From NCBI GenBank assembly GCA_024741835.1, contig JAENRP010000256.1, forward strand, positions 3,788-65,536: a stretch of 61,749 nucleotides of DNA, in the 5' to 3' direction. The translations under genes were made by a program, and so were the position numbers. Positions 4,403 through 57,400 of this stretch are shown here, piece by piece. Origin of the DNA: Diplocarpon mali. Its lineage: Eukaryota; Ascomycota; Leotiomycetes; Helotiales; Drepanopezizaceae. Numbering within the stretch: position 1 is the first letter of the stretch; every line of letters starts with the position of its first letter. The notes under the pieces are model-generated. The model made no database searches. It saw nothing but the letters and a program-made list of their open reading frames with translations, and was not told the DNA's origin.

Positions 4403-4599
4403 TGTCGTGCAGAATGGGCGGAGTCTCCACTTATTCTGGAGACCCTCCACGTGACTCTGCTAAGTTATAGACTCTCCCTTTTCTTTCCGAAGTCTCCTTA
4501 CTATATATATACTAAATAATAATATAATCAATCATCTTCCCCTACTTCTGCAAGCCTCCTAAGCGACCTAATGAAGGCCCTCTAGCCGACCGTACTATA
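4403..4599 (+). repeat. B1 5' LTR
   Basis: It begins TGTCGTGCAGAATGGG and ends CCGTACTATA (CGCACCACA before RIP, as in the 3' LTR). It contains CACGTGACTC at 4448-4457. Confidence 0.9.
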
Positions 4600-4618
4600 G
4601 TTATAAGTCCTATAAGCA
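4600..4618 (+). promoter_or_regulatory. Candidate primer-binding site of B1 (half-tRNA-iMet type)
   Basis: Directly after the LTR comes GTTATAAGTCCTATAAGCA; in B3 the same site reads GTTATAAGCCCTGTGAGC. This matches the complement of the anticodon arm of initiator tRNA-Met (CAGGGCTCATAAC), the primer type known from Drosophila copia. The family D sites (GGTTATAAGCCCTAG) agree. This is inference from sequence likeness only. Confidence 0.55.
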
Positions 4619-4860
4619 CTTTAATATGCTTTCTCTTTGCATACAACCGGCTAGAGGGCCCTTTAAGCTCCTAACCGACTTTTTAAGTATTTATAACAAC
4701 TCGAAGGACCTTTATTTTTAATTAACAAATCTCTAATTTCCGATCGAACCTTATTTGCAAACTCTATTTATATACCTAACCTTTTTACCAGACTCTATTT
4801 AATATATCTGACTCTTTAAGCATCTCTGAGCCTTGCTTTAATACCTTTGCCTTTTAAGTA

Positions 4861-7800
4861 AAGTAGTTTAATAAATATATATTCTTCGCTAAGCTCTATA
4901 ATATTACTATTTTTACCGATCCGAGACTCCTATTTAAGTCAATTATAAAGACTGAGCCTTAAGCTCCCTTTATATAGGAGCTTAAGGAATTGGAAACGGC
5001 TAACCTCTGTATAGTATACGCAAGGTTATATAAAGAGTATATAGCAACTTTATTTAAATAGATTTACGCCCGCTTTCCCTTAGGAGATCTGTCAAAAGCT
5101 CCTCCTTTATAAGCGTCTTATAAGAATATTAAAGATGAATATAAAATCCTAATAAAGGAGCACTATATGCGTAAGGAAACTTGGAAGACCTAACGCAAAT
5201 ACTATAAGCTACTATTAAAATAGGTCTTTAAGACTGTTAATAGAATGCTTTTAGCTTCTGCGATAGCTTAAGTATAAATCTAAGCTAAGAAGCTCTCCTC
5301 TTTAATACCTAATAGAGATACTCCTATAAGTAGAACTACTGCTAACGACCTATATACTAATTTAGTAAACTAGCAACTCTTACTTTAAGGCCTAGTATCT
5401 ATTTTAAAGCGTGATATTGCGCCTTTTGATAAGGCTATTTAGTCTTAGACAAGGCTCTAGTATTGCGATATACTATACTAAGGCAAGATTAAGAGAACTA
5501 ATACTTAGCAGTAGATCCAGGAGTAGCAAGAGGCGTACTGCCTAATAGAATAATACAATCTCCTTAAGATTAAAGGGAGACTGGGAGTAATTGACTTTTT
5601 AAACTTAATTATAATGAAAATTAATCTAAGTTAAGTGACTCGCTTAAGGAAGGAAATAATCACTAATAAGTAGATAGGAACCCTATGCAAGTACGACCTA
5701 ATATAACTAAGCTGCGCCCTAGCGGGTATTAAATCTAATAGAGCGATCGATAATAAAGGGCTAGCAGTTTTTACTACTTAAGAGTCTCTCCTAGATGCCA
5801 AGACCCCTTCGCAGGCTTTAGTAAGCAGCTCTCGAAATCGCTCTATAAGCTCTAGAAGGGAGATTAGGCCTAAGTACCTTTATAAAGGCTTTAAAAATCA
5901 CTATTGAAAGCCTTAGGACTATCGGAAACTATTATATACTATAGACAGGCGCAAGGAAAATATAAAGGTTCTCCCCTTGCGAGAGGAGGTCCTACAAATA
6001 CGAAAGGCGTTAAATGCAAGAGACTAATTTAAAGGTCTTTGAGTATAGCTTAAGGAGAATGATATTGCGGTAATAGCAATTGACAAATTCAAGGGAAAGG
6101 CTTTAGCCTTTAAAGAGGATAGTTTAGGTAAAAGGGAGAACTTACTAATCTTTATAATAATAGATCCCTTTGCCTTCGACGCTTTTAAAGAATCATTTAA
6201 TATTTACTACCTCTTTAAGTTAGAATGCCACCTACTCTCCTTAAGTACGCTCTTTAACAATTGTATAGCCACTTATATTATTAATTTAAAGGATTTACTT
6301 ATCGCAGGCACCTTTAAGCCTTTTAGCGACTTGCAGCAATATATTAAAATAGGTACCTTAAGACTCCTAATTATTAAGAAAGGTGATAAATATATAGTAG
6401 ACTCTCTTCTATAGCATAACGTCTCTCCTATAGGAATAATGCTTTATAACGTTGCTATTATAAAGGAGTTTACTACTAATATTATCTTAAAAAGGCTCCT
6501 TATGGATAAGGGTTTTTAATACTTTAAAGTAGACCTCACTTTGCGCTCTAAGAGTATTAAAGATTCTATAAAGCAAGCTTAATTAAAGCGTTACTATAAT
6601 CTCATTTTCTTTAAATATAAGCCTATTAATTATTTAAATCTTTTAAATATACTTTAATATAACTTCTTTGCTTTAATAGTATTTCCTATAGCTAAGACGA
6701 CGCTTTATAATAGGTTTTAGTCTAACTATGCACTTATAAGGGTGCAGGATAATAATATATATACTTAGCACCTTTGCGCTGGCTACTTAAGCGCAAAGGC
6801 TCTTTAAGCGCTAGTCAAGTGCGCTAAGGGAGTAAAGATCAGGGGAGTACAGAGGCTAAAGTGCCCTATATATATAATAGTATCTGCTAAGTAAGTTATT
6901 TCTTATGCTACCTTTAAGAACCGATCTCTGAGGCCCTTCTTTAAGATCTCTTAGGATCTCTTTAACTTTTTAAATAACTTATATAATAATTGCTTATAAG
7001 TTCTTTTAATTAAGGATAAGTATAGTAGTATACTTTAAATATTCCTACTAAGATCGAAGGGCAGAGACGTAGTTATAAAGGTCCTTTAAGCCTTTGAAGC
7101 ATAAGTGAAACGCTAATATAGGCTTTCTATTTGCAAAATCAGGTAAGATAATAATACTTTAATAATCTCTTTAAAGGAAGACTCTCTTATAAAGTACTAG
7201 AGATAAGTAAAAGAGGAAGGAATCGATTTAGAGCTTACTCCTACTTATATATACTAACCTAATAGAGGCGCAGAGCGAGTAGGAAAGGAGTTAATTAAAT
7301 GCTTTATTAAAATGAGGATTTATACCAGGCTTCTAGTAAGCCTTTGGCTAAAGGTTGTAAAGGCTGCTATATACCTTTATAATATCTCTTTACTTACTAG
7401 GAAGAAGATAATCTCATTAAGCAAGGCTCTCTACAGTTAGTTTAAGTAGTATTTTCGATTTTATAAGCTGCTGCTTATTAAGCAAATAATAGCAAGCTTA
7501 AAGCCTGACTAAAGTCGCATTTATATATATAGCGCTTGCATATACCCTTTAATTAAAGAGAGGAAGGCAAGGAGGGACCGCTGAACCTTTAAAATTAAAT
7601 TATAAAGGCACTTAGGTTACTTAATTGGATATATTACCTCTAATATTTATAGAATCTAAGTTCCTATACTCTAGTAAGTAATAATAACTTATAATATCAA
7701 ATTCGATAAGTCTCTCTTTTATAATCCAAAAGCTAAGCGCGCAAACCCTATATCGCGTTAAGAACTTAAGATAACCCTTTAATTGATCGAAAAGGGAGAG

Positions 7801-10410
7801 GGAGCTTAGAACGCTAAGTTTAAAGGCATTTTCGAAGAATCGGAGCTTATCGTAAGGCCGAACGCAATCGCTATAAAAGAAGCCACTATATAGAAAGAGC
7901 CTATATTATAGACCGACGCTACTCTATAGCCTTTAACTAATAATATAAAAGGCCTTAACTTAAATCTAAATTCTCTAAGAGACCCGCTTAAAAACTTAAG
8001 GGTAGAAGTAAGCGAACTAAAAGCCACTTCGCCAGTCTCTAAGAAGGTAAATAGCGACTAGAGCTTAAGGGTAATGATTCCCTATAGAGGCCTTATTAAA
8101 GAAGGAACTATAAACAACTTTAAAAGAGTCTTTAAAGACGAGTTCTATAAGGCGATCGGCAGATCTTTAGCTGCTATTTTACGCAAGAATGGAAATGGCT
8201 TAAGGGCTTTAAGACAAAGTCTTTAATTATAAAGGTAGGCCTTAGTAAACTCTAGTAAAAGGCTAAAGGTACTACTATCGAGATTTAGGAAGAGCTTTAA
8301 TAGTCTTATAAGAAGTGACTTAGTAAAAGAAGCGGGCCTTAATAATATAATACCTTAAGTTATAATACTAGCTTAAAGACTATAGGCTTAGGAAATAGAG
8401 CTACCCAGACTCCTAAAGGAACCTTTAGTAATAATAAAAATAAAGGAAGAGACCTATAGAAAAAAGCGTAAGAAGGAACTCCCTCTTCTTAAGCAAAAGA
8501 GGATAAGACGCTTAAGCGTTAAGTAATAAGAGACTTTAAAAGTGTACGCTACTACTTTAAAGCATATGCTCTCTTAAAGCAATATTAATTTACCTTACTC
8601 CCTATATGCGTAAGAGTTTATATCAACCTTTTAAGTAAACAAATAAATAAGGGAGGATAGGAAGGACTATTTAATAGTTTATATAGTTATTAAAGCTATA
8701 GTTAATAGTTAGGCAAAGGATAAAGCATAGTCTCTTAACCGCCTATAGTACTAAGGCTCTTTACCAAAGCCTTTAAAAGGATAGCTAGACCTAGAGAAGC
8801 ACCCTTTTAGCAAACGATTTAAGGAAAGAGGGCACTAGGAGATTAGGAATCTAAAATCTCAAAGTTATTAAAGAATTGTACAAAGGGATTACTCAAAGCC
8901 CTCGCTAATACTATTAAAATGGGTTTTTACTTATAAGGTTAATAGTTTTAATAAGCTTTTAAAGTGCCGATTATAGCTAGTTGTATAAGAGGATCTCTAA
9001 GACGAAGCTTCAATTTTCTCAACCTATATAGCCATACTTATAGTAAGGTCTTTTAAGGTATTAATAGCGCTTACTATATACTTTAATATAGAAGTAAAGC
9101 AGTTCGATATTATTAACGCGTTTATTAATGCTCTTAAAGACCTAAGGAGTGCTCTAGTCATATGCTTCCTATTAAATGGCTTTAAGCGCCTTAGTATAAT
9201 AGTAGAACTAGACCGCGCGCTCTATAGGCTGAAAGACTCTTTAGCACTATAATATAAGAACTTCGCAAGAACGCTCAAGGGCCTTTAACTTAAGCCACTA
9301 AGTAAGGAGCCTTATATTTTTATAATAAAGGATCGCATAGTCTTCATAGCATTTTATATCGACGATATTTAAGTATTATATAAGGCCTTTAACTTAAATC
9401 AAGCGACTCGTCTAATTAAAGACCTAAAGAGGGCATATAAGCTTACTATTATAAGAGATATCTCCTAGTTCCTTAAAGTAAGGATTATTTAAGATAGGAA
9501 AGCAAAGAGGATCTCCTTAGTTTATAATACTTATATTAAGAAGATTATTTAAAAGTTCAAAGCTAATATAAGGAGAGTGCCTAATATTCTACTACTAAAG
9601 AAGGAGTTTATTAAGAACTTAAGGCAAGCTTCTTTAAAAAAGGTAAAGGAGTACTAAGAGAAAATAGGCTCTATTCTTTATATAGCGATTATAATACGCC
9701 TAGATATTACGTTTATAGCCTTCTAATTGTCTTTCTTCTTAACTAATCTAAGCTTTAAGCACCTCTTAGCTGCAGATTAGACGCTTTAATACTTATATAG
9801 TATACGCTTCTTAAGAATTGCCTATAGCTTTAAAGTTAAGGAATACCAATTAGTCGCGTCTTTAAATGCTTCTTTTAAAGATGATTAAGAGACCTATAGA
9901 TCCTCTTAAGGATACGTCTTCTTCCTATTTAAAAGACTAATTATTTAAAAAGCAAATCGCCAAGCGACTATTATACTCTCCTTTATTAAAGTAGAACTCT
10001 ATAGTATAGTTTCTATTGCAAAGGAGATAATAGCTATAAAACGCCTTTTTAAAGAGATTCGCATAGACTCCCTCTTTAAATAGAATATATATTATAATAA
10101 CTAATAGACGATTTAGCTAATTGTTATAAAGAATAAGAAGATTAAAACAAGCCTTTAATATATCGAAATCAGTAATATATAAATCCGCTAAAAGTATTAG
10201 AAAGGAAGCTTTTAGATAATCTACCTCTTTACTAAGGAGATATATATAAATAGGCTTACTAAGAACCTAGACTGCTAGAAGTTTAAAAGCTTTATTTATT
10301 TATTAAACCTTTAAAGCTTTTAAATAATTGTTTAGCAACTTATACTTACTAGCAAGTAGTTACTTATTACTAAGAGACTTATACTTATAAGCTCTTACTC
10401 TCTTATAATT
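4861..10410 (+). pseudogene. B1 Gag-Pol polyprotein remnant
   Basis: One reading frame (frame 1) runs the whole way, broken by TAA/TAG only at plausible Gln/Trp codons. In order it shows a Gag region, a GAG_pre-integrase finger (HLCAGYL...VKCAK; Cys and His partly mutated), an integrase core (LLIKDKY, then KIR-DNNTL, then NRGAERVGKELIK), an RVT_2 reverse transcriptase (LPKPLKG, QLV, VKQFDIINAFINA, FYIDDIQVLY) and a copia RNase H (VELYSIV, then YYNN-QTI, then YIEISNI). The YIDD box is intact. The upstream start is not resolvable. The protein makes virus-like particles and copies element RNA. It is certainly non-functional here. Confidence 0.93.
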
Positions 10411-10414
10411 ATAT

Positions 10415-11763
10415 TTATTTGTTTTCTTTTGCAAATCGTACTATAGAAGCTTCTCCTTTTTTAAAAATATAAAATAGGTAATATTCTTAAGCTACTATTA
10501 TAAGGCGCGACCCTCTCTTAGATTCTTTTAGCTAAGGCTAAGAGCCGAGATACTATAGCTAAGAGCTTTGCATAGATCTCCTTTTAAGAGAGGCCTACTA
10601 GTACTCCCTTGGCCAGAGGCCTGCTGGCGAATATACTAGCGACAGCAGGGGCGAAGGCAAAGGGTGCGGCAGGGGCGGCAGCAAAGGCGGAAGCAGTAAT
10701 AATAAAGGCAGGAGAGATAAATAGAGATACAAACGGGTCGGCGTTAGTAGTAGCAGCAGGGATAAGAGTAGTAGCAGCAGCAAGCGGGGGGAATAAAGCG
10801 GCAGAGGATAGGCCGGCGGCAAATGCGAATAGTATACTAAGAGCAAAGGAGGCAATAGCACTACTACTCGCAGGAGTAGTAGGCCCTTTTAGCATTAGTA
10901 TCCGATCGCTCCTATCTTTTAAAATTAGCTTAAAACTTAATAAGACTTAATAAGACGTACTACAGAAGCTTTAAAGAGCACCCTTTACTGCATTAAGTAG
11001 TAGCGCTACCTCCTCCTTAGAGGCGCCGCAGGCATAGGCCGATACAATAGCCTCTTAAGAGGCAAGGAAAGGTCTGCTAGCCTATTAGTAGCCGTTGCTT
11101 AATACTATATAATAAATGCAACGCGTACTAAAGGTGCTATTAAAGTACTAATAATTAAGATTACTAGTACTCTTATATATAATACAATGCATATATATAT
11201 TATTGCGCTCTATTATAGGCTTAGGCATATAGCGCGCAATAAGAGCAGGGCTCTTAAGTAGCAGCGGCGGCAGCAAGGGCGGCGGCGGCGGCAGCGGGGA
11301 CGGCAGCGGCGGCTCATTACCTTGCAAGCGCTAGGAGGACTGCGCTAGGGTTACAGCTCCCGAAGGAGCGCTAGCAACCTAGCGCAAAGTTAGTATAATA
11401 ACGCAGGGTATAAAGACTCTAAGGGTCTTACTTTACAAGGTCGGCTAAGGCCGCGATAAGTAAGAGTTCCTTCTATATTCGAAAATTATTAGTATAAAGA
11501 CGATATTTTTAAATAATAAAGGAGGGTTGTTTTTAAAAAAAGGGAAGGAGAACCTCTGTAATAGAAATACTCTATAGGAAGCCCAATAGAGTACTAGCGT
11601 AAAATTGCGAAGATTCCTAAGCGCGCTTATTGCCTATAGCAACCCTTCTTATTTTAAAAGGAACGACCTTTAAAGGGGCGGTACGTAAGATAGAGCCTCT
11701 TTTCTTTACAATTGCTATTCTTTCCTTTATTTTATCTATATAGCTAAGCGATTCTAAGAGCAT
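10415..11763 (-). pseudogene. B1 antisense ORF between pol and 3' LTR (unknown protein)
   Basis: On the minus strand an ATG at 11763, 18 bp inside the 3' LTR, opens MLLESLSYIDKIKERIAIV..., followed by about 50 codons free of stops. Then come a GC-rich Ala block, a central block (SQEAIVSAY-type, here EAIVSAYACGASKEEVALLL) and an Ala-rich C-terminal block with KEIYAKLLAIVSRLLALAK. In this copy the central and C-terminal blocks share one frame. The N-terminal block is out of phase, presumably through an indel in the Ala repeat. I do not recognise a family. The plus-strand Ala/Gly-rich frame over the same DNA is probably its shadow. Confidence 0.6.
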
Positions 11764-11780
11764 CGCCTAACTAAGGGGTA

Positions 11781-11977
11781 TATTATATAGAATAGGCAGA
11801 GTCTCTACTTATTCTAAAGACCCTTTATATAACTCTACTAAGTTATAGACTCTCCCTTTTCTTTCCGAAGTCTCCTTATTATATATATACTAGATAATAA
11901 TACAATCAATCATCTTCCCCTACTTCTGCGAGCCTCCTAAGCGACCTAATAAAGGCCCTCCAGCCGACCGCACCACA
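11781..11977 (+). repeat. B1 3' LTR
   Basis: It has the same 197 bp as the 5' LTR. It starts TATTATATAGAAT (RIP form of TGTCGTGCAGAAT) and ends GACCGCACCACA, followed by the TSD TTATA. Confidence 0.9.
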
Positions 11978-25125: not shown

Positions 25126-26490
25126 TTATTTATTATCTTTTATAAAGTATATTATAAAAGCTCTCCTTTTTTAAAAATACAAAATAGGTAACGTTCTTAA
25201 GCTACTATTATAAGGCGCGACCCTCTTTTAAATTCTCTTAGCTAAGGCTAAAAGCTAAGACGCTATAGCTATAAGCTTCGCATAGATCTTCTCTTAAGAG
25301 AGGCCTATTAGTACTCCTTTGGCCAAAGGCCTATTAGTAAATATACTAATAATAGCAAAGGCGATAGTAAGAGGTACGGCGATAGGGGTAGCAAAGGCAA
25401 GGGCGGTAGGAGCAAAGACAGAGGCGGTAATAGCAGGGGCTAAGGAGACGAATAAGGAGACTATAGCAGCAGCAGCAATAGTAAAAGCAAAGGGGATAAG
25501 AGCGGCGGCAGTAAGCAAGAGGAATAGGACAGTAGAAGATAGGCTAAAGGCAAATGCAAATAGTATATTAAAAGTAAAAGAGATAGTAATACTACTATTT
25601 GCAAAAGCGGCAAGCCCTTTTAATAATAGGATCCGATCGCTTCTATCTATTAAAAATCAGCTTAGAACTTAATAAGATTTAATAAAACGTATTATAAAAG
25701 CTTTAAAGCGTACCCTTTATTATATTAAGTAGTAGTACTACTTCCTTTTTAAAGATACTATAGGCATAAGCTAATATAATAGCCTCTTAAGAGGCGAAGA
25801 AAGGGCTATTAGCCTGCTAGCAGCTATTGCTTAATATAGTATAATAAACGTAATATGCATTAAAGGTACTATTAAAGTATTAACAATCGAGATTACTAAT
25901 ACTTTTATATATAATATAGCATACGTACGTATTATTATATTCTATTATAAGCTTTGGCATACAACGTATAGTAAGGGCAGGGCTCTTAAGCAGGAGCAGC
26001 AATAGCAGCAGTAGCAAGGGCGGCAGCAATAGTAGCAGTAGCTTATTACCTAATAGGCGCTAGGATAAGCGCGCTAGGGTTGCAGCTCTTAAGGGAGCGC
26101 TAGCGACCTAGCGCAAAGTTAATATAATATAAGGTATAAGGACTTTAAAGGTCTTACTTTATAAAGGCAGCTAAGGCTATAATAAGTACGAGTTCCTTTT
26201 ATACTTTAAAAATAATTAATATAAAGATAATATTTTTAAATAATAAAAGAGGGTTATTTTTAAAAGAAGGAAAGGAGAGCTTTTATAATAGAAATACTTT
26301 ATAAAAAGCCTAATAGAGTACTAGTATAAAATTGCAAAGATTCTTAAGAGCGCTTATTACTTATAGTAACCCTTCTTATTTTAAAAGGAATAACCTTTAA
26401 AAGGATAGCATATAAGATAAAGCCTCTTTTCTTTATAACTGCTATTCTTTCTTTTATTTTATCTATATAGCTAAGCGATTTTAAAAGCAT
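25126..26490 (-). pseudogene. B2 antisense ORF
   Basis: The ATG at 26490 gives MLLKSLSYIDKIKERIAV, 18 bp inside the 3' LTR, with about 50 codons nearly free of stops. The central block reads EAIILAYAYSIFKKEVVLLL and the C-terminal Ala-rich block is open at 25294-25518. Central and terminal blocks are in different phases in this copy. Position and N-terminal sequence match B1 and B3. Stops are TAA/TAG. Function unknown. Confidence 0.6.
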
Positions 26491-30066: not shown

Positions 30067-30268
30067 TGTCGTGCAGAATGGGCGGAGTCTCCACTTATTC
30101 TGGAGACCCTCCACGTGACTCCTGCTGAGTCATAGACTCTCCCTTTTCTTTCCGAAGTCTCCTTACCAAATATATACTAAAAAAAAAACAATACAATCAA
30201 TCATCTTCTCTTATATCAGCGAGCCTCCTAAGCGACCCAATGAAGGCCCTCTAGCCGACCGCACTATA
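30067..30268 (+). repeat. B3 5' LTR
   Basis: From TGTCGTGCAGAATGGG to CCGACCGCACTATA. An A-run near 30180 makes it slightly longer than the B1 LTR. Confidence 0.92.
30112..30132 (+). promoter_or_regulatory. E-box / Gcn4-type sites in B LTR
   Basis: CACGTGACTC (30112-30121) joins an E-box core CACGTG to TGACTC, and TGAGTCA (30126-30132) is a perfect Gcn4/AP-1-type palindrome. These are candidate bHLH and bZIP sites upstream of the element promoter. Seen in sequence; binding is inference. Confidence 0.4.
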
Positions 30269-30287
30269 GTTATAAGCCCTGTGAGCA
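30269..30287 (+). promoter_or_regulatory. Candidate primer-binding site of B3
   Basis: GTTATAAGCCCTGTGAGCA right after the LTR, the best preserved of the iMet-half-tRNA-like sites in the window. Confidence 0.55.
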
Positions 30288-30530
30288 CTTTAATATGCTT
30301 TCTCTTTGTATGCAACCGGCTAGAGGGCCCTTTAAGCTCCTGACCGACTTTTCGAGTATTTATAACGACTCAAAGGACCTTTATTTTCAATTAACAAATC
30401 TCTATTTTCCGATCGAACCTCATTTACAAACTTCATCTATATACTTAACCTTTTTCACTAGACTCTATTTAATATATCTAACTCTTTAAGCATCTCTAAG
30501 CCTTGCCTTAATACCTCTGCCTCTTAGGTA

Positions 30531-33500
30531 AAGTGGTTTAGTAAATATATATTCTTCGCCAAGCTCTATAATATCACTATTTTTGCCGATCTGAGACTCT
30601 TATTTAAGTCAATTATAGAGACCGAGCCTTAAGCTCCCTCTATATAGGAGCTTAAGGAATTGGAAACGGCTAACCTCTGCGTAGTATACGCAAGGTCGTA
30701 TAAAGAGTATATAGCAATTCCATCTAAATAGATTTACGCCCGCTTTCCCTTAAGAGATCCGTCAAAAGCTCTTCCTCTATAGGCTTCTTACAAAGATATC
30801 AAGGATGAATATGAAATTCTAATAAAGGAGTACCATATATATAAGGAAACTTAGAAGACCTAACGCAAATACTACAAACTACTCTTAGAATAGGTCTTTA
30901 AGACTATTGATAGAACGCTCTTAGCTTCCGCGATAGCTTAAGTATAAATCCAAGTTAAAAAGCTCTCCTCCTTAATACCTAATAAAGACACTCCTATAAG
31001 TAGAACCATTGCTAACGACCCGCATACCAATTTGGTAAACTAGCAACTTTTACTTTAAGGCCTAGTATCCATTTTAAAGCGTAATATTACGCCTTTTAAT
31101 AAGGCTATTCAGTCTTAGACAAGGCTCTAATACCGCGATATACTATAGCGAGGCAAGACTAGGAGAACTAATACTTAGTAGTAGATCCGGGAGTAGTAGG
31201 AGGCGTACCGCCTAATAGAGTAATACAGTCTTCCTAAGATTAAAAGGAGACTAAGAGTTACTGACTTTTTAGACTCAGTTATAGTAAAGATTAATCTAAG
31301 TTAGGCGACTTGCCTAAAGGAGGAAATTATTACTAATAAGCAAATAGGAACCCTATATAAGTACGACTTAATGCAGCTAAGCTGCGCCCTAGCGGGCATT
31401 GAATCTAATAGAGCGATCGATAATAAAGGGCTAGCAGTTTTTACTACTTAAGAGTCTCTCTTAAATGCTGAAACCCTTTCGCAGGCTCTAGCAAGCAGCT
31501 CCCGAAATCGCTCTATAAGCTCTAGAAAGGAGATCAGGCCCAAGTGCCTTTATAAGGGCTTTAAAAATCACTATTAAAAGCCCTAGGACTATCGGAAACT
31601 ATTATATGCTATAGATAGGCGTAAGGAAAATATAAAGGCTCTCCCCTTGCGAGAGGAGGTCTTACGAATATAAAAGGCGTTAAACGCAGGAGACCAGTTC
31701 AAGGGTCTCTGAGCATAGCTTAAGGAGAATAATATTGCGGTAATAGCAATTGATAAATTCAAGGGAAAGGCTTTAGCCTTTAGGGAGGACGGTTTAGGCA
31801 ATAAAAGGGAGAACTCACCAGTCTTTATAGTAATAGATCCCTTTGCCTTTAATGCTTTTGAAGAATCGTTCAATATCTACCACCTCTTTAAGCTAGAACG
31901 CCACCCGCTCTCCTTAAGTACGCTCCTTAATAATTGCGCAGCTACTTATATCATTAATTCAAAGGATTTACTTATTGCAGGCACCTTTAAGCCTTCTAGC
32001 GACTTATAGTAATATATTAAAGTAGGTACCTTAAGACTCTTAATCATTAGGAGAGGTAATAGATATATAGCGAACTCTCTTTTATAGCATAACGGCTCTC
32101 CTATAGGGATAATGCTATGCAATATTGCTATTATAAAGGAGTTTACTATTAATATTATCTTAAAGAGGCTCCTTGCGGATAAGGGTTTTTAGTACTTTAA
32201 AGTAGACCTTACTTTGCGCTCTAAGAGCATTAGAGATTCTGTAAAGCGAGCTTAGTTAAAGCGTTACTATAATCTTGTTTTCTTTAAATATAAGCCTATT
32301 AACTATTTAGATCTTCTAAATATGCTTTAATATGACTTCTCTGCCTTAATAGCGTTTCCTATAGCTGAGATAATACTCTATAATAGGTTTTAGTCTAGCT
32401 ATACACCTATTAGAGTATAGGATAATAACGCGTACACTTGGCACCTTTGCGCTGGCCACTTAGGCGCAAAGGCTCTTTAAGCGCTAGTTAAGTGCGCTAG
32501 GAGAGTGAAGATCAGGAGAATATAAAGGCTAGAGTGCCTTATATACGTAATAGCGTCTGCTAGGTAAGTTATTTCTCGCGCTACCTTTAAGAACCGATCT
32601 CTAAGGCCCTTCTTTAGGATCTCCTAGGATCTCTTTAACTTTCCAGACAACTTATATAACAGTTGCTTATAGGTTCTTTTAATTAAGGATAAGTATAGCG
32701 GTATACTTTAGATATTCCTACTAAGATCAAAGGGCAGAGATATAGTTATAGAGGTCCTCTAGGCCTTTAAAGCATAAGTGAAATACTAATATAGGCTTTC
32801 TATTTACAAAATCAGGCAAGATAATAACACTTTAGTGATCTCCTTAAGGGAAGACTCTCTTATAGAGTACTAGAGATAGGTAAAAGAGGAGGGAATCGAT
32901 TTAGAGCTTACTCCTGCCTATATATATTAATCAAATGGAGGCGTAGAGCGAGCAGGAAGGGAGTTGATTAAACGCTCTATTAAAATGAGAATCTACGCCA
33001 GGCTTTTAGCAAGCCTTTAGCCGGAGGTTATAGAGGCTGCTATATACCTTTATAATATCTCCTTACTCGCTAGGAAGAAGATGATCTCATTAAGCGAGGC
33101 TCTTTACAGTTGGTTTAAGCAGTATTTTCGATTCTATAAGCCGCTGCTTATTAAGTAGATGACGGCGAGCTTAAAGCCCGACTAGAGTCGCATTTATATA
33201 TATAGTGCTTGCGTATACCCTTTAATTAAGGAGAGGGAGGCAGGGAGGGACCGCCGAACCTTTAAAATTGAACTATAAGGGCACCTAGGTTACTTAGTTG
33301 GATATATTACCTCTAATGTTTATAGAATCTGGGTTCCTATACTCTGGCGAGTAATAATGACTTGTAATATCGAATTCAATAAGTCTCTCTTCTATAGTCC
33401 AGAAGCTAAGCGCGCAAACCCTATATCGCGCTAGGAACTTGAGATAACCTTTTAATTGATCGGAGAGGGAGAAGGAGCTTAGGACGCTAAGTTCAAAGGC

Positions 33501-36050
33501 ATTTTCGAGGAATCGGAGCTTATCGCAGGGCCGAACGCAATCGCCGTAGAAGAAGCCGCTATATAGGAAGAGCCTGTATTATAGACTAATGCTACTCTAT
33601 AGCCTCTAACTAATGATATAAAAGGCCTTAACTTAAATCCAAATTCTTTAAGAGACCCGCTTAGAAACTTAGGGGTAGAAGTAAGCGAACTAGAAGCCAC
33701 TTCGCTAGTCTTTAAGAAGGCAAATGGCGACCAAAGCTTAAGGGTGATAATTCCCTATAGAGGCCCTACTGAAGAAGGAACTGTGAACAACTCTAAGGGA
33801 GTCTCTAGAGACGAGTTCTATAGGGCGATCGGCAGATCTTTAGCCGCTATTCTATATAGGAATAGAGATGGCTTAAGGGCTCTAAGATAGAGTCTTCAGT
33901 TATAAAGGCAGGCCTTAGTAAACTCTAGTAGAAGGCTAAAGGCACTACTGCTAAGATCTGGGAGGAGCTCTAATAGTCTTATAAGAAGCGACCTAGTAAG
34001 AGGAGTAGGCCTTAATAATATAATACCTCAAGTTGTAATACTAGCTCAGAGACTATAGGCTTAGGAGATAGAGCTACCTAGACTCTTAAAGGAACCTCTA
34101 GTAATAATAAAAATAGAGGAGGAGACCTATAGAGAAAAGCGCAAGGAGGAACTCCCTCTTCTTAGGCAAAAGAGGATAAGACGCTTAAGCATTAAGTAAT
34201 AGGAGACTTTAAAAGTATATGCTACTGCTCTAAAGCATATGCTCTCCTAAAGTAATATTAATCTACTTTGCTTCTTATATGCATAGGAGTTTGTATTGAC
34301 CTTTTAAGCGAATGAATAAACAAGGGAGGATAAGAAGGACCATTTGACAGTTTATATAGTTGTTAAAGCTATAGTTAATAGTTAGGCAAAGGACAGAGCG
34401 CAGTCTCTTAACCGCTTATAGTATTAAAGCTCTTTGCCAAAGCCTCTAAAAGGATAGCAAGACCTAGAGAAGCACCCTTTTAGCAAACGATTTAAGGAAA
34501 AAGGGCGCTAGGAAATTAGGAATTTAGAATCTCGGAGTTGCTAGAGAATCGTATAAAAGGATTACTCGAAAACCCTACTAATACTATTAAAATAGGTTTT
34601 TACCTATAAGGTTAATAGCTCTAGCGAGCTTTTAAAGTGCCAATCACAGCTAGTTATATAAGGGGATCTTTAAGACAAAGCTTCAATTTTCTTAACCTAT
34701 ATAGCTACGCTTATAGCAAGGTCTTTTAAGGTATTAATAGCGCTTATCGCATACTTTAATATAGAAGTAAAGCAGTTCGACGTTATTAACGCGTTTATTA
34801 ATGCTCCTAGAGACCTAAGGAGTGCTTTAGTTATATACTTCCTACTAGATGGCTTTAAGCGCCCTAGTATAGTAGTAGAACTGGACCGCGCGCTTTATAG
34901 GCTAAAAGACTCTCTAGCGCTATAGTATAGGAACTTCGCAAGAATGCTTAAGGGCCTTTAACTTAAGCCACTAGGCGAGGAGCCTTGTATTTTTATAACA
35001 AAGGATCGCACAGTCTTTATAGCGTTTTATATCGACGATATTCAAGTGTTATATAAGGCCTTTAACCTAGATTAGGCGACTCGTCTGATTAAAGACCTAA
35101 AGAGGGCATATAAGCTTACTATTATAAGAAATATCTCCTAGTTCCTTAAAGTAAGGATTATTTAAGATAAGAAGGCAAAGAGGATCTCCTTAGTTTATAA
35201 TACCTATATTAAGAAGATCGCTTAAAAGTTCGGAGCTAATATAAGGAGAGTGCCTAGTACTCTACTGCTAAAGAAGGAGTTTGTTAAGAACTTAAGGCAA
35301 GCTTCCTTAGAAAAGGTAAAGGAGTACTAAGAAAAAATAGGCTCTATTCTCTATATAGTAATTATAATACGCTTAGACGTTGCGTTCGCAGCCTCTTAAC
35401 TGTCTTTCTTCCTAACTAATCCAAGCTTTAAGCACCTCTTAGCTGCGGACTAGACGCTTTAATACTTATATAGCACGCGCTTCTTAGGAATTGCCTATAG
35501 CTTCGAGGCTAGGGAATACTAATTGGTCGCATCTTCAAATGCTTCTTTCGGAGATGACTAAGAGACCTGCAGATCCTCTTAAGGATATATCTTCTTCCTA
35601 TTTAAAGGATCGATTATTTGGAAAGCGAATCGCTAAGCGACTGTCACGCTCTCCTCTACTAAAGTAGAACTCTATAGTATGGTTTCTACTGCAAAGGAGA
35701 TAATAGCTATAAAACGCCTCTTTAAGGAGATTTGCATAGACTTCCTCTTTAAATGAAATATATATTGCAATAACTAATAGACGATTCGGCTAATTATTAT
35801 AGAGAATAAGAAGATTAAAACAAGCCTCTGATATATCGAAATTAGTAATATGTGGATCTGCTAAGAGTACTAAAGAGGAAGCTTTTAGATAATCTACCTT
35901 CCTATTAGGGAGATGCACGCAGATGGGCTTACTAAGAACTTAGACCGCTAGAAGTTTAAGAGCTTTATTTGTTTATTAAACCTCTAAAGCTTTTAAACAA
36001 TCGTTTAGCAACTCGCACTCGCTAGTAAGTAGTCACTTATTACTAAAAGA
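30531..36050 (+). pseudogene. B3 Gag-Pol polyprotein remnant
   Basis: Frame 0 runs from KWFSKYIFFAKLYN (Gag) to RNase H. Landmarks: finger HLCAGHLGAKAL...VKCARR with LECLIYVIA; integrase VLLIKDKYSGIL, KIR-DNNTLV, SNGGVERAGRELIKRSIKMR and YLYNISLLARKKMISL; RT VKQFDVINAFINAPRDLRSA, ELDRALYRLKDS and FYIDDI-VLYKAFNLD; RNase H GYIFFLFKGSIIWKANR, STKVELYSMV, YCNN-QTIRL, YIEISNMWI and ADGLTKNLDR-KFKSF. All breaks are TAA or TAG. It is better preserved than B1. The open stretch at 30295-30489 in another frame is probably leader or shadow. Confidence 0.94.
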
Positions 36051-36087
36051 CTTATACTTACAAGCTCCTACTCTCTTATAGTTATAT

Positions 36088-37437
36088 TCATTTGTTTTCT
36101 CTTGCAAAGCGTATTGCAAAAGCTCTCCTTTTTTAAAAATACAGGATGGGTAACGTTCTTAAGCTGCTATTATAAGGCGCGACCCTTTCTCAGATCCTCT
36201 TAGCTAGCGCCAGAAGCCGCGAAGCTATAGCTATAAGCTCCGCATAGATCTCCTCTTAAGAGAGGCCTAGAGGCACTCCCTTGGCCAAAGGCCCGCTGGC
36301 GAATATACTAGCAATAGCAGGGGCAAAGGCAGGAGATGCAGCAAGGGCGGCGGCAATAGCAGGAGCGGCGATAGTAGGGGCGGGGATAGGGGAGACGAAG
36401 GGAGATACTATAGCAGCGGCTGCGATAGCGGCGGCAGATAGGATAAGAGCGGCGGCGGCGATGGCAAGGGCGAACGGGTCCGAGCCAGAGGGCCCGGGAG
36501 CGAACGGGAACGGTATGCCAAGAGCAGGAGAGGCAGCAATACTACTACTCGCAAGAGTGGTAGGCCCTCCTAGCACCGGGGTCCGATTGCTCCCATCTTT
36601 TAAAATCAGCCTAGAACTTAATAAGACTCGACAAATGTACTATAGAAGCTTTAGAGCGCACCCTTTACTGCATTAAGCAGTAGTGCCACCTCCTCTTTAA
36701 AGGCGCCGTAGGCGTAGGCCGATACAATAGCCTCTTAGGAGGCGAGGAGAGGTCCGCTGGCCTATTAGCAGCTATTGCTTAGCACTATATAATAAACGCA
36801 ATGCGTATTAAAGGTGCTATTAAAGCACCGACAATCGAGATTACTAGTGCTCTTGCGTGCGATGCAACGTACGCACGCGTTATCGCGCTCTATCGTAGGC
36901 TTAGGCATATAGCGCGCAGCGGGGGCGGGGCTCTTTAGCAGCAGCGGCAGCAGGGGCGGTAGCAGCGGCAGGGGCGATAGCGGCGGCGGCTTATTGCCTA
37001 GCAGGCGCTAGGACGATCGCGCTAGGGTTGCAGCTCCCGAAGGAGCGCTAGCAACCTAGCGCAAAGTCAGTATAACGCAAGGTATAGGGACTCTAAGGGT
37101 CTTACTTTGCAAAGGCGGCCAGGGCCACGATAAGCAGGAGTTCCTTTTATATTTAAAAATTATTAGTATAAAGATAATATTTTTAAATAATAAAGGAGGG
37201 TTATTTTTAAAAGAAGGGAAGGAGAACCTCTGCGATGGAAATACTTTATAGGAAGCCTAATAGAGCACTAGTATAGAATCGCAAAGATTCCTAAGCGCGC
37301 TTATTGCCTATGGCGACCCTTCTCGTTCTAGAAGGAACAACCTCTAGAGGGGCGGCATATAAGATAGAGCCTCTTTTCCTTATAACTGCCATTCTTTCTT
37401 TTGTTTTATCTATATAGTTAAGCGATTCTAAGAGCAT
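36088..37437 (-). pseudogene. B3 antisense ORF between pol and 3' LTR (unknown protein)
   Basis: The ATG at 37437 lies 18 bp inside the 3' LTR. The N-terminal block reads MLLESLNYIDKTKERMAVIR and stays open for 49 codons to GNKRA, then continues with TAG/TAA only (ELLLIVALAAFAK; GCN-rich Ala run). The central block, in another phase, reads RYMPKPTIERDNA, then EAIVSAYAYGAFKEEVALLL. The C-terminal block (36256-36576 open, Ala/Pro-rich) ends EEIYAELIAIASRLLALAK and ERVAPYNSSLR, with a TGA at 36088. The phase shifts probably reflect indels. No family is recognised. It lies tail-to-tail with pol. Confidence 0.62.
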
Positions 37438-37454
37438 TGCCCAATTAAGGGGTA

Positions 37455-37656
37455 TATTATGTAGAATAGGCGGAGTCTCCACTTATTCTAGAGACCCTCT
37501 ACGTGACTCCTGCTAAGTCATAGACTCTCCCTTTTCTTTCCGAAGTCTCCTTACCAGACATATACTAAAAAAAAAACAATATAATCAATCATCTTCTCCT
37601 ATATCAGCGAGCCTCCTGAGCGACCCAATAAAGGCCCTCCAGCCGACCGCACCACA
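37455..37656 (+). repeat. B3 3' LTR
   Basis: From TATTATGTAGAATAGG to GACCGCACCACA, 202 bp, followed by ATTAT. Confidence 0.92.
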
Positions 37657-39424: not shown

Positions 39425-39587
39425 TATTGCGCTATAAGGAGCCTTAGGCTCTAAGGACTGGCTTATATAATATACTCCTAAAGTAGCCACGGAGCACTTC
39501 TATAAAGAGAGCTCAGATATACAATTAGAGTAGAATTTTATAAGCTTCTGCCACTACTAGGAATCCACCTCTAAATACAGCACGACA
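39425..39587 (+). repeat. F 3' LTR (163 bp)
   Basis: A PPT-like CTAAGGGGTG is followed by TATTGCGC (TGTT... before RIP), and the LTR ends GCACGACA. After it, CACTCCCTTAGCC resumes B4 exactly as in B3 at 36275. The 5' LTR is off-window, so the TSD (probably CACTC) cannot be confirmed. Confidence 0.75.
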
Positions 39588-40510
39588 CACTCCCTTAGCC
39601 AAAGGCCTATTAGCGAATATATTAGCAATAGTAAGGGCGATAGCAAAAGGTGCGGCAATAGTAGTAGTAAAGGCGAATATAGTAAAGGCAAGGGCAATAC
39701 TAGAAACAGCGATAGTAAAGGTAGAAAAGATAAAAGGCAATACTATATTAGCTATAGTAATAATAGCGGCAGATAGGATAAAAGCAGCGGCGGCGGTGAA
39801 TAAGGGGAATAGGGCTACGCTAAAAGGACTAAGGGTAAACGGGAATAGTATATTAGAAGTAGAAGAGGCTATAGTACTACTACTTATAAAAGTAGCAGGC
39901 CCTCTAAGCACTAAGGTTTAATCGCTCCTATCTTTTAAAATCAGCCTAGAACTTAATAAGACTTGATAAACGTACTATAGAAGCTCTAGAGCGTACCCTT
40001 TACTACGTTAAGCGATAGGACTACCTCCTCTTTAAAGGTACTGCAGGCGCGAGCTAATATAATAGCCTTTTAAGAGGTAAGGAAAGGGCCGCTAGCCCAT
40101 TAGCAGCTATTGCTTAGTATAATATAATAGATATAACGCGCATTAAAGGTGCTATTAAAGTACTAATAATCGAAATTACTAATGCTCTTATATATAATAT
40201 AGCGTACGTATGCGTTATTATATTCTATTATAGGCTCTGGCATATAACGCGTAATAAGGGCAAGGCTCTTAAGTAGCAGCAGTAGTAGCAGCAGCAGCGA
40301 AGGCGGCAGGGATAGCAGCGGCGGCTTATTGCCTAGCAGGCGCTAAAATAATCCGACCAAGGTTTCTATTCCTTAAAGAGCGCTAGCGACCTAGCGCAAA
40401 GTTAGTATAATATAGGATATAAAGACTTTAAAGGTCTTACTTTATAAGGGCGGCTAAGTTTATGATAAGTAGGAGTTCCTTTTATATTTAAAAATTATTA
40501 GTATAAAGAC
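39588..40510 (+). mobile_element. B4: fragment of the post-pol region of a family B element
   Basis: It matches B3 from about 36275 to 37175. F is inserted at its left end and D1 at its right end. On minus it holds the central and C-terminal blocks of the B antisense ORF; the Ala-rich block is open from 39911 down to the F junction at 39588. The outermost element of the visible nest. Confidence 0.85.
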
Positions 40511-40705
40511 TGTTAAGATAGGTGATATAGCTATTACTCTGATGTATTATTATATAACCCTATTGCTTAGTTAATAGGATGTTAATACGTATATAGCTAT
40601 AGGGAAGAAAGGGGTAACCTTCCTTCCCTAACTCTTATTAATATATCGACTATCGACCTTTAAAAGCCTCCTTTACCTACTGCGCCGACTTACTTAAGCT
40701 TAATA
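40511..40705 (+). repeat. D1 5' LTR (195 bp)
   Basis: TGTTAAGATAGG to AAGCTTAATA. Confidence 0.9.
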
Positions 40706-54480: not shown

Positions 54481-57400
54481 AATTAGTATAATAATACTAA
54501 TTGTATAATATATATAATTAATAAACCCTACCTATTTAAAGGCCCGCTTATTAAAATAAAAAGGCGCTTTATTAAGGTTAGTAGTAAAAGGTTATATATA
54601 GATTCGATAGGTATAGTAGAGATAAATATCGCTAGTATTTCTTTCCTTTTCTAAAATATTCTTCTTATACTTAGCTTAAGTATTAATCTTTTATTTAGCT
54701 ATAAGATTTATATAAAGTTGAATTATATAAGAGTTTCTAATAATTAATTTATATAATTTATAAATAATAATTATAAAGTGATCTTTAAGGTTAAAATCAA
54801 AGATAGACTTTATATTAACTTAAAGGTGATATTATAGAAATTAACTCTTAGGCCAGACTTATAAGTAGATTCCTTTAAGGAAAGTGCACTCTTTGCCCTA
54901 ATATAATTAAGTAAGGATAGGGAGAATAGATAGACTCTTAAGCTAGGACTATAGGAAGATTGTAAAGTATCCTTAAAGATAACTCTTAAGCTAGGATCAT
55001 AAGTGAATTTAATAGAAATGACTCTTAGGTTAAGACTATAAGTAGATTCTGCAGATTTGCTAATAATAACTCTTAAGCTAAGATCGCAAATAAAATTCGC
55101 AGAAATAACTCTTAGGCTAGGACTGCGAGTGAAATTCGCGAATTTATTAAAAACGACTCCTAAGCTAGGACTATAAGTAGATCTTGCCATTTTTAAGAAA
55201 TCGACTCTTAAGCCAGGCTTGCAATTGGAAAATGGTAAAACCTTAAACTGCTATTATTAGTCCTTTCTAGCCGCTAATAATAAAGTATCAACTGATAATA
55301 GGCTACTAAAGCTATTAGAAGCCAAAAGCCTATTAAAGTATTAGCTAATATATAGAAGATTTGCGCATCTAAGGCTAAAGAAATTAAAGGGCTTATAAAA
55401 GGTCTTGACTTTAAAATAGAAGATCTAAGTACTAAAGGATCGCTTAGTATACTGAATTTGCAAGCTAATAAAACTTCGAAATTAGATATAAACTAAGCTT
55501 AGTTTATAAAAAGATTCGATACTAGCGCTAATATCTATTAATACTACTAGACTATTTATAACTTTAATTAAAGGAAATAATTGGTTTTCTTAAATAGTAG
55601 ATAATTCCATTTAATAGATATAGACTATTTGTATTAAGACTAAATCTAATCTTATAAAAAAGCTAGAAATTTAAAAAGTAATAAAGGAACGCTAGACTTA
55701 GTTAAAGCTAATAGCTATTAAGTCTAATAACACATTAGAGATTAAGGTAAAGCTTAACAAATAGGTAAAATAAAGAGTTTGCTATAAACTAATTATAATA
55801 TATAAAAGCTCCTATTAAAATAGTATTACTAAGCAAAGTATTTAATAAGTAAAGACTAACTATTATACTCTATTATAAAATGCTAACCTACTATTAGAAT
55901 TCTAGGACCTTGCGATTAAGGTAGATATATACTTGCGAAATAGAATAGGTAGTAGACTAATAGTTAATAGCACTTAAATATTACTATATAAGGCATATTT
56001 TAAATAGAAATTAAGCTTAGACTATATCTACGTCTTTAAAAGCGTTTACTACTCTTATATTAGCCTAAAGTCCTAGCCTATAAGTATAAAGAGTAAGAAG
56101 CTAATAGATTAAGGTAAAGAATATATATTTATTAAGTATATTAAATAGATAATAAAGCAATAGATAGTATATATACTAGATCTAAAGTAAGTAATTATAT
56201 CCTTAGTAATTGAGTTTAACAAATCTTAAAATAGGAGAGAGCTATTTTTAAAGCTTTATATACTTAGAGATTCGCAAGGTATACTACTTAATAGTAATAC
56301 TATTAAGCTGAACTAATAACCCCTTTCTCTTAACTTAAGTATATTAAGCGCACCTATTAATCAATGACCTACTAGTCGCCTAAAGGCCGAATAGACTATT
56401 CCTATCGTTTGTAAACTACTTAAAGTATAGAATAACTTTAATATTATTATTCCTTTAGTTAAAGTACCTATAGTAAAGGATATTCTTAAAATAGGTATAA
56501 GTAATAATAAGCCTTTATTACTAGAAAGTAGTTCTTTAAATAATAAGCCTATAGAACCTATAGCCAAACCTACGCCTTTAAAAAGGAATAAAGACTTAGA
56601 ACTAGAAGGCACCTTAGATAAATTTAAGTCTAAGTATATTTAGACTATAATAGCGCATAAGATTTATAAGCTCGAACTTTAATAGAGCTTTAATAAAGAT
56701 AATATATTCTTAGCCGCTAAGGGGATAATGAAAATCTCTCTTCTAAAGATATATAATAAAGCTATTAATAACCTAAAGAATAAAGTAGTATAAAATAAGG
56801 CAATTTAAAAAGAGATAAGCTCTTTTATTACAAATAGCATATAGATAAAGGAACTAACGCTAAAGGATATAAACCTAGTATTAATAAAGTAGGTCTTTAT
56901 AATTAAGATATATATAAATAGGACCTTAGAATATTATAAGGTAAGGCTTATAGCTAAGGGCTTCTCTTAATAGTATAGAGAAGACTACTTTAATATATTT
57001 GCGCTAATAGTTCGCATAGATACTATTTATATATTTATAGTAATAGTAGCTGCTAAGAACTTTAAATGCAAATAGTATAATAATAAAAATGCATTTACTA
57101 AAGCGATTATAAAGGAACGGATTTTTCTCTCCCGACCTAATAGTATTCTTATATACGCTAGCCACTCTCTTTATATACTTCGCAGTATCTATAGGCTTAA
57201 ACAATTGGCTTATAATTAGAACCTCTTATATAGCTTTACTTTAATAGAAATAGGATTTATTTAAAGCCTAGCTAACCCTTATCTATTTACTTATACTAAG
57301 TGTAAAATCAAATTACTATTATATATTAATAATATTACTATAGCTATAAAAACAATAACTTAATTAGATTGGTTCTTTATAATAATTCGGAAACGTTTTA

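What the first reader, a model, noticed from the sequence alone, without database searches (positions are those of the whole stretch)
36088..37437. Family B copia elements carry an antisense gene between pol and the 3' LTR
In B1, B2 and B3 a minus-strand ATG lies 18 bp inside the 3' LTR and opens the same N-terminus (MLLESL-YIDK-KER; ATG at 11763, 26490, 37437). About 50 codons follow with no or almost no stop, and B1/B3 differences there look mostly conservative (I/V, K/R, S/N). A central block (EAIVSAYAYGAFKEEVALL) and an Ala-rich tail (EEIYAELIAIASRLLALAK) follow. B1 keeps the central block and tail in one frame, and F (next finding) keeps N-terminus and centre in one frame, so together they suggest one protein of roughly 450 residues. 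I know of antisense ORFs in some plant LTR elements, but not of this one.
Basis: partly seen in the sequence, partly recalled or inferred. Interest (0 to 1): 0.88.

Follow-up and report, generated by a model that had tools for sequence, protein, structure and literature searches.

The report
Spliced antisense gene inside fungal retrotransposon
An abundant copia retrotransposon in what looks like an apple-blotch fungus carries an extra gene on its opposite strand, with two apparent introns and a reading frame that seems to have been kept while the element multiplied, a layout known from plant elements and HTLV but that I did not find described for fungi.

Summary
B3 runs LTR to LTR (30067-37656) with a 5-bp target-site duplication. 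Between its pol stop (36030-36032) and 3' LTR lies a minus-strand gene, 37150-36190: three exons, two short introns (GTAAGA...TACTGAC...TAG; GTACAT...CTGAT...AAAAG), 288 codons rather than 450.

Main evidence: across 46 copies exons 2 and 3 have 6 and 12 length classes, each constant modulo three. Intron 2 is 44, 45 or 46 nt, yet the spliced length is a multiple of three in 46 of 46. Leader and spacer carry 1, 2 and 5-nt indels. In-frame stops rise as GC falls, as RIP would cause.

The protein has a basic start (AT-hook-like in 3 of 46 copies), a Pro-rich run, a Cys cluster, two predicted helices and an Ala-rich tail. The 19 database relatives found are all from Diplocarpon coronariae. All 46 copies carry at least one in-frame stop, and no RNA was examined. 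A nuclear regulator of the element is my best guess.

The parts
30067..30268 (+). 5' LTR of element B3, preceded by ATTAT
   Evidence: the same 5 bases follow the 3' LTR (target-site duplication)
34674..34922 (+). piece of pol reverse transcriptase, which fixes the sense strand of B3 as +
   Evidence: open piece; only Pfam match RVT_2, E 0.026, 14.6 bits, below the 31.6-bit cut-off
36030..36032 (+). stop codon taken as the end of pol
   Evidence: the same in the less mutated copy L061
36190..36596 (-). exon 3 of the antisense gene (Ala-rich tail, EEIYAELIAIASRLLALAKRI), stop at 36192-36190
   Evidence: 12 length classes in 46 copies, all equal modulo 3
36597..36640 (-). intron 2: GTACAT...GCTGAT...AAAAG, 44 nt here
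   Evidence: 44, 45 or 46 nt in 27, 10 and 9 of 46 copies; GT kept in 38, AG in 45; fits the junction in P0001-P0003 and P0005
36641..37055 (-). exon 2: Pro-rich run, Cys cluster, helical block EAIVSAYAYGAFKEEVALLLNAVKGAL
37056..37105 (-). intron 1: GTAAGA...TACTGAC...CTAG, 50 nt
   Evidence: GT kept in 46 of 46, AG in 35 of 46; branch-like sequence present in 46 as seven variants that differ by transitions
37106..37150 (-). exon 1, 45 nt; start codon lost here
37455..37656 (+). 3' LTR of B3, followed by ATTAT; presumed source of the antisense promoter (not tested)
10518..11476 (-). the same antisense gene in element B1 (LTR to LTR 4403-11977, TTATA on both sides)
   Evidence: introns at 11431-11379 and 10960-10916; flanks; outer bounds worked out
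25228..26202 (-). the same antisense gene in element B2, more mutated
   Evidence: outer bounds worked out from these
39587..40512 (-). fourth, diverged fragment (leader end to exon 3)

Best explanation
Family B is a copia-type element whose pol-to-3'LTR region encodes an accessory protein on the opposite strand. An antisense transcript, presumably started in or next to the 3' LTR, carries a short upstream ORF and is spliced twice. It gives a protein of about 288 residues: basic AT-hook-like start, Pro-rich run, Cys cluster (C-x2-C-x10-C-x-C-x8-C-x2-C-x6-C in copy L062), two helices, Ala-rich tail. Because the genomic RNA is the sense strand, antisense introns survive retrotransposition. Shown here: place, splice signals, frame-keeping across copies, stops that track GC loss. 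Inferred: transcription, splicing, zinc and DNA binding, nuclear location, and the role, which I take to be regulation of the element's own LTR or its integration, as proposed for plant antisense ORFs and known for HBZ. Confidence is about 0.85 for the spliced coding gene and about 0.4 for the regulatory role; the figure below is for the gene.
For: Indels: exons 2 and 3 have 10 and 14 listed gap types, all multiples of three; leader/LTR, introns and spacer have 17, of which 1 is. Fisher p 4e-10 was computed with 24:0 against 1:15, one short on the non-coding side. Lengths: exon 1 is 45 nt in 46 of 46; exon 2 has 6 classes and exon 3 has 12, each constant modulo three; intron 2 is 44, 45 or 46 nt; the spliced length is a multiple of three in 46 of 46. 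The Cys/helix block is 240 nt in 46 of 46. In L061, runs of four or more equal bases number 18 in 850 nt of exon and 16 in 746 nt of non-coding sequence, though exon runs are all C and the others mostly A/T. Four NCBI proteins fit the exon 2/exon 3 junction. Stops: this frame has the fewest of six over 46 copies in exon 2 (237 against 374-575) and exon 3 (63 against 94-775); none in exon 3 of the five most GC-rich copies; stops fall with GC, Spearman -0.74; none in exon 1 of 46. Transversion columns by codon position 1/2/3: Cys/helix 0/1/5 within the family and 0/0/4 against the diverged fragment; Pro-rich plus Cys 2/1/13, p 0.0002, with 53 copies.
Against: No RNA data. Every one of the 46 aligned copies has 1 to 10 in-frame stops and 45 have lost the start codon; intron 1 lost its AG in 11 and intron 2 its GT in 8, all of which RIP could do. 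The exon indels lie in Pro- and Ala-codon runs, where triplet slippage can mimic selection. The tail shows no significant codon-position bias (13/6/15, p 0.15; 30/28/33 in the rougher alignment). The pol control has too few changes to test (1/1/4). One sense frame shares the wobble columns. P0001 lacks the Cys block and most other database models are fragments. The AT-hook-like GPGRPRK is read in 3 of 46 copies only (L072, L022, L059) and not in the open copy L062. No convincing Pfam domain; single-sequence fold poor, mean pLDDT 60, most of the Cys part under 50.
Confidence: 0.83

Rival explanations
1. The antisense strand makes a spliced long non-coding RNA that regulates the element; open frames are a by-product of GC-rich triplet sequence.
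For: Spliced antisense lncRNAs from LTR elements, copia included, said not to encode meaningful peptides, are reported for Blumeria hordei (PMC10648671, passages). In the GC-rich copy L061 several frames are open, and Pro/Ala codon runs favour triplet slippage.
Against: No non-triplet gap in exons although L061 has 18 base runs there; Cys/helix block constant at 240 nt with changes nearly all at third positions; this frame has fewest stops.
Confidence: 0.1
2. The real gene is on the sense strand (an env-like or pol-extension ORF), and the antisense frame only mirrors it because it shares wobble positions.
For: One sense frame, in register with pol, has its third positions in the same columns (worked out) and is open for 171 codons in L061.
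Against: That frame has 374 and 339 stops in exons 2 and 3 over 46 copies against 237 and 63, runs through intron 2, whose length varies by 1 nt, and would put more variable columns at second than at first codon positions (19 against 9, summed).
Confidence: 0.03
3. A host gene was captured once by this family in reverse orientation and hitch-hikes without use to the element.
For: Introns are what a captured host gene would have; no relative outside D. coronariae was found, so a young origin is possible.
Against: Frame kept through many tail-length classes suggests use while copies multiplied; present in B1, B2 and B3 and at many loci. No host source gene stood out among the hits listed, but only the best candidates are scored, and whether elements without the gene exist was not tested.
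Confidence: 0.1

Closest known systems
Plant antisense ORFs between pol and 3' LTR (aORF-3R: Retand, Grande, RIRE2)
   Same: Position between pol and 3' LTR, orientation, unknown role with DNA binding suggested for TRP28 (PMC11963269 and PMC7264820, passages).
   Different: The Retand lineage, Grande included, is plant Ty3/gypsy and nearly always carries the TRP28 domain; this is a fungal copia-type element with no TRP28 or other convincing Pfam match, two introns, a Cys cluster and an Ala-rich tail.
HBZ of HTLV-1
   Same: Antisense gene next to the 3' LTR; HTLV has an antisense promoter inside the 3' LTR (PMC7264820 passage). That HBZ is spliced is recalled.
   Different: HBZ is a bZIP protein (recalled); no bZIP match here. 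Here the ATG lies outside the LTR and no transcript has been seen.
Spliced antisense lncRNAs of Blumeria hordei LTR elements
   Same: Plant-pathogenic fungus, copia elements among them, antisense, predicted splicing (PMC10648671 passages).
   Different: Reported as without meaningful peptides; here exon frames are kept.

Membership tests
Ty1/copia LTR element (host of the gene) | Two LTRs with 5-bp target-site duplication | tested here: met
   B3: LTRs 30067-30268 and 37455-37656, flanks ATTAT/ATTAT; B1 flanks TTATA/TTATA
Ty1/copia LTR element (host of the gene) | RVT_2-type reverse transcriptase on the sense strand | tested here: inconclusive
   B3 piece matches RVT_2 at E 0.026, 14.6 bits, below cut-off, the gene being full of stops; 150 RVT_2 matches listed for the genome
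Antisense aORF-3R of plant LTR elements | ORF antisense to gag-pol between pol and 3' LTR | tested here: met
Antisense aORF-3R of plant LTR elements | TRP28 (PF04195) domain, typical of the Retand lineage | tested here: not met
   P0001-P0003 and the open L062 piece: no PF04195; only two chance-level matches at E 2 and 3.2
HBZ-like retroviral antisense gene | bZIP domain | tested here: not met
HBZ-like retroviral antisense gene | Transcript started in the 3' LTR and spliced | not testable with these tools
   no RNA data held; splice signals only
AT-hook protein | GRP core with basic flanks (PF02178) | tested here: inconclusive
   RGPGRPRK in 3 of 46 copies (L072, L022, L059), which are three of the four most GC-rich; L025, the other, reads SPGRPCK. 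No Pfam match at E up to 1; own-genome family search found nothing, but its controls did not ring either
Antisense lncRNA | No coding constraint | tested here: not met
   triplet-only indels in exons, spliced length a multiple of three in 46 of 46; triplet slippage remains a caveat

The most novel reading that the evidence does not exclude
A fungal copia family keeps an intron-containing antisense gene whose AT-hook-like, Cys-cluster protein works in trans on chromatin: it steers integration towards, or keeps expression going in, the AT-rich RIP-mutated compartment. That would help explain why this family became so abundant in a genome with heavy RIP-like mutation. Antisense introns, invisible to retrotransposition, would also act as a switch, since only nuclear antisense transcripts make the protein.
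Probability: 0.15. Interest if true: 0.85.

Novelty: new variant of a known kind. Interest (0 to 1): 0.62.

Why it matters
Antisense accessory genes of LTR elements are known from plants and retroviruses, with unknown roles in plants. A spliced one in a fungal copia-type element, with frame-keeping visible over 46 copies, would extend the theme to another kingdom. It offers a small, testable protein in a family that may make up much of the 20.7% LTR/Copia content reported for D. coronariae strain DC1_JKI (PMC11527701, passages; that this family is the main part is my guess). It also explains 19 D. coronariae database proteins (18 hypothetical, one misnamed) as pieces of one transposon gene.

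Tried and rejected
Pfam on the X-masked read-through, on the open L062 piece and P0001-P0003, and PDB by sequence gave nothing convincing. Single-sequence AlphaFold2 of the open L062 piece gave pLDDT 60, so no fold search was run. A scan of viral contigs found no relative. The profile search of 5.8 billion proteins found D. coronariae only, but scored just the 7998 candidates sharing most words. An own-genome pattern search for branch-site-like words was uninformative. The looser intron pattern is no better than chance (1 found, 0.48 expected); the stricter one (0.0015 expected) was written after seeing the site. The first alignment of 53 copies had a badly aligned tail; the second left out 7 that were truncated or short: L030, L043, L009, L021, L016, L062 and B2. 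Before that, loci with matches under 1000 nt (L018, the fragment at 39.6-40.5 kb) and duplicates were dropped. Copies were those ranked best by three searches, two with protein queries, which could favour in-frame copies; 7 of the 46 (L064, L066, L068-L072) were held from the search whose query covers exon 3.

Full report
Setting. The window is part of a 49.4-Mb assembly of 676 contigs. The protein relatives found are all from Diplocarpon (Marssonina) coronariae, a Leotiomycete, so I take the genome to be that species or very near it; this is inference. The DNA carries RIP-like mutation: in the 46 aligned copies GC runs from 0.34 to 0.58, and TpA/ApT is 1.43 to 1.87 in the loci measured except L061/L072 (0.93) and L062 (1.08).

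The element. B3 has LTRs at 30067-30268 and 37455-37656 with ATTAT on both sides; B1 runs 4403-11977 with TTATA on both sides. Pol is on the + strand: an open piece at 34674-34922 looks like RVT_2, though below the Pfam cut-off, and the RNase H end stops at 36030-36032.

The gene. The copy at the end of contig C6 (L061, partly also held as L072) is the most GC-rich one aligned and shows the layout without any change of base. A 45-nt first exon reads MEGTPAHRGPGRPRK, then come a 50-nt intron GTAAGA...TACTGAC...TAG, an exon with a Pro-rich run, a Cys cluster and a helical block, a 45-nt intron, and an Ala-rich exon. The exon 2 frame of this copy has one stop. In B3 the exons are 37150-37106, 37055-36641 and 36596-36190, together 867 nt, with 6 internal stops (4 TAA, 2 TAG); the end of exon 3 is about 158 bp from the pol stop. 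Pol and the antisense gene are thus tail to tail.

Frame-keeping. Of 53 distinct copies collected, 46 could be aligned from LTR to pol. Exon 1 is 45 nt in 46 of 46. Exon 2 has 6 length classes (391-421) and exon 3 has 12 (380-431), each constant modulo three in 46 of 46. Intron 2 is 44, 45 or 46 nt in 27, 10 and 9 copies, so exons 2 and 3 stay in one frame only if it is removed; the spliced length is a multiple of three in 46 of 46. Leader, LTR and spacer lengths fall in all three classes, and the pol stretch is 402 nt in 46 of 46. By gap type, 24 of 24 in exons 2 and 3 and 1 of 17 in non-coding parts are multiples of three (one 1-nt gap at the edge of the pol stretch was left out). The counts are not independent, some gap types in the Pro run may be one event aligned in several ways, and triplet repeats slip by threes. 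Base runs prone to 1-nt slippage are about equally frequent in both parts of L061, but are C runs in exons and mostly A/T runs outside.

Splice sites. Intron 1 keeps GT in 46 and AG in 35 of 46; intron 2 keeps GT in 38 and AG in 45. The departures are G to A.

Stops. In exons 2 and 3, as cut for the count (L061 3489-3896 and 3951-4334), in-frame stops occur at 11 sites; nine lie at CAG, CGG or an existing stop in the reference copy, one at CGC (9 copies, perhaps misaligned) and one at GAA (1 copy). Every aligned copy has 1 to 10 of them. Their number falls with GC (Spearman -0.74). This frame has the fewest stops of six in both exons.

Substitutions. Counting only purine/pyrimidine changes, which RIP cannot make, columns with any change number 6 of 448 in pol, 3 of 159 in the spacer, 4 of 400 in the leader and 11 of 188 in the LTR, against 16 of 147 in the Pro-rich part, 34 of 275 in the Ala tail and 6 of 107 at the C-terminus; the Cys block has 3 of 170 and the helix block 3 of 96. 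I take the family to be young, with fast-changing low-complexity parts. Codon positions 1/2/3: Pro-rich plus Cys 2/1/13 with 53 copies; with 46 copies Pro-rich 4/2/10 (p 0.04) and Cys plus helix 0/1/5; against the diverged fourth fragment 1/1/2, 0/0/4 and 1/2/4 in the Pro-rich part, Cys/helix part and exon 3. The tail gives 13/6/15, not significant, and the pol control 1/1/4 is too small. One sense frame shares the wobble columns, but its stops and the intron-2 lengths speak against it.

MLLESL is present at the three places named. The frame closes after 48 codons in 44 of 46 copies (34 with ATG, 10 with ATA at the start); the other two close after 34 and 55. Gaps of 1, 2 and 5 nt lie in the leader. 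I read it as an upstream ORF; its conservation says little, since the whole leader hardly varies.

AT-hook likeness. GPGRPRK is read in L072, L022 and L059, 3 of 46, which are three of the four most GC-rich copies; L025, the other, reads SPGRPCK, and L062 differs too. It is a motif I recognise, not a database match.

Database. 19 proteins at E up to 10, all named as D. coronariae (or its older name), were found with a five-sequence profile. The four that reach across exon 2 to exon 3 join RSFR to (N/D)GSDRT, which fits removal of intron 2 as drawn here; no expression evidence was seen for them. P0001 also lacks the Cys block, which I think is a prediction error: the block is constant in length and its changes are at third positions. 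Many of the other models start in odd places.

Copy number. The Cys-block query gave 309 candidate places, of which the best 150 were scored; the P0001 query gave 632 candidates, 150 scored, 226 matches. These are lower bounds, and truncated copies are included.

Literature. [quoted passage not shown] Spliced antisense lncRNAs without meaningful peptides are described for Blumeria LTR elements (PMC10648671, passages). Two surveys of fungal LTR elements do not contain the word antisense (PMC5445492, PMC3248453, term look-ups). In searches I saw no fungal antisense protein gene in the listed titles and abstract starts (66 listed 20 of 45 papers, 86 listed 12 of 24); the library holds open-licence papers only.

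Mechanism. I commit to an accessory regulator made from a spliced antisense transcript. Shown: place, splice signals, frame-keeping. Inferred: everything from transcription on; zinc binding is inferred from the cysteines alone.

Noticed in passing
window 54810-55190 (-); also L062: A 126-codon minus-strand ORF made of degenerate repeats of about 20 residues around 'SPSLRVI'; a similar 175-codon repeat ORF lies in L062.
   Followed up: no
window 39587-40512 (-): A fourth, diverged copy of part of the antisense gene lies between other sequence, its MLLESL block and LTR not found beside it.
   Followed up: partly
46 aligned copies, L061 3956-4230: The Ala-rich tail varies far more between copies than pol or the leader when only transversions are counted (34 of 275 columns against 6 of 448 and 4 of 400), with 12 length classes in exon 3.
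   Followed up: partly
P0016: A D. coronariae protein named as a PTS trehalose transporter subunit resembles the Ala-rich tail of this transposon gene; probably a misannotation.
   Followed up: no
P0006, P0009, P0011: Three NCBI models contain MV(R/Q)SAGGPSLGRL near their start, which looks by eye like antisense LTR sequence, and continue into exon 3: perhaps a prediction artefact, perhaps an LTR first exon as in HBZ.
   Followed up: no
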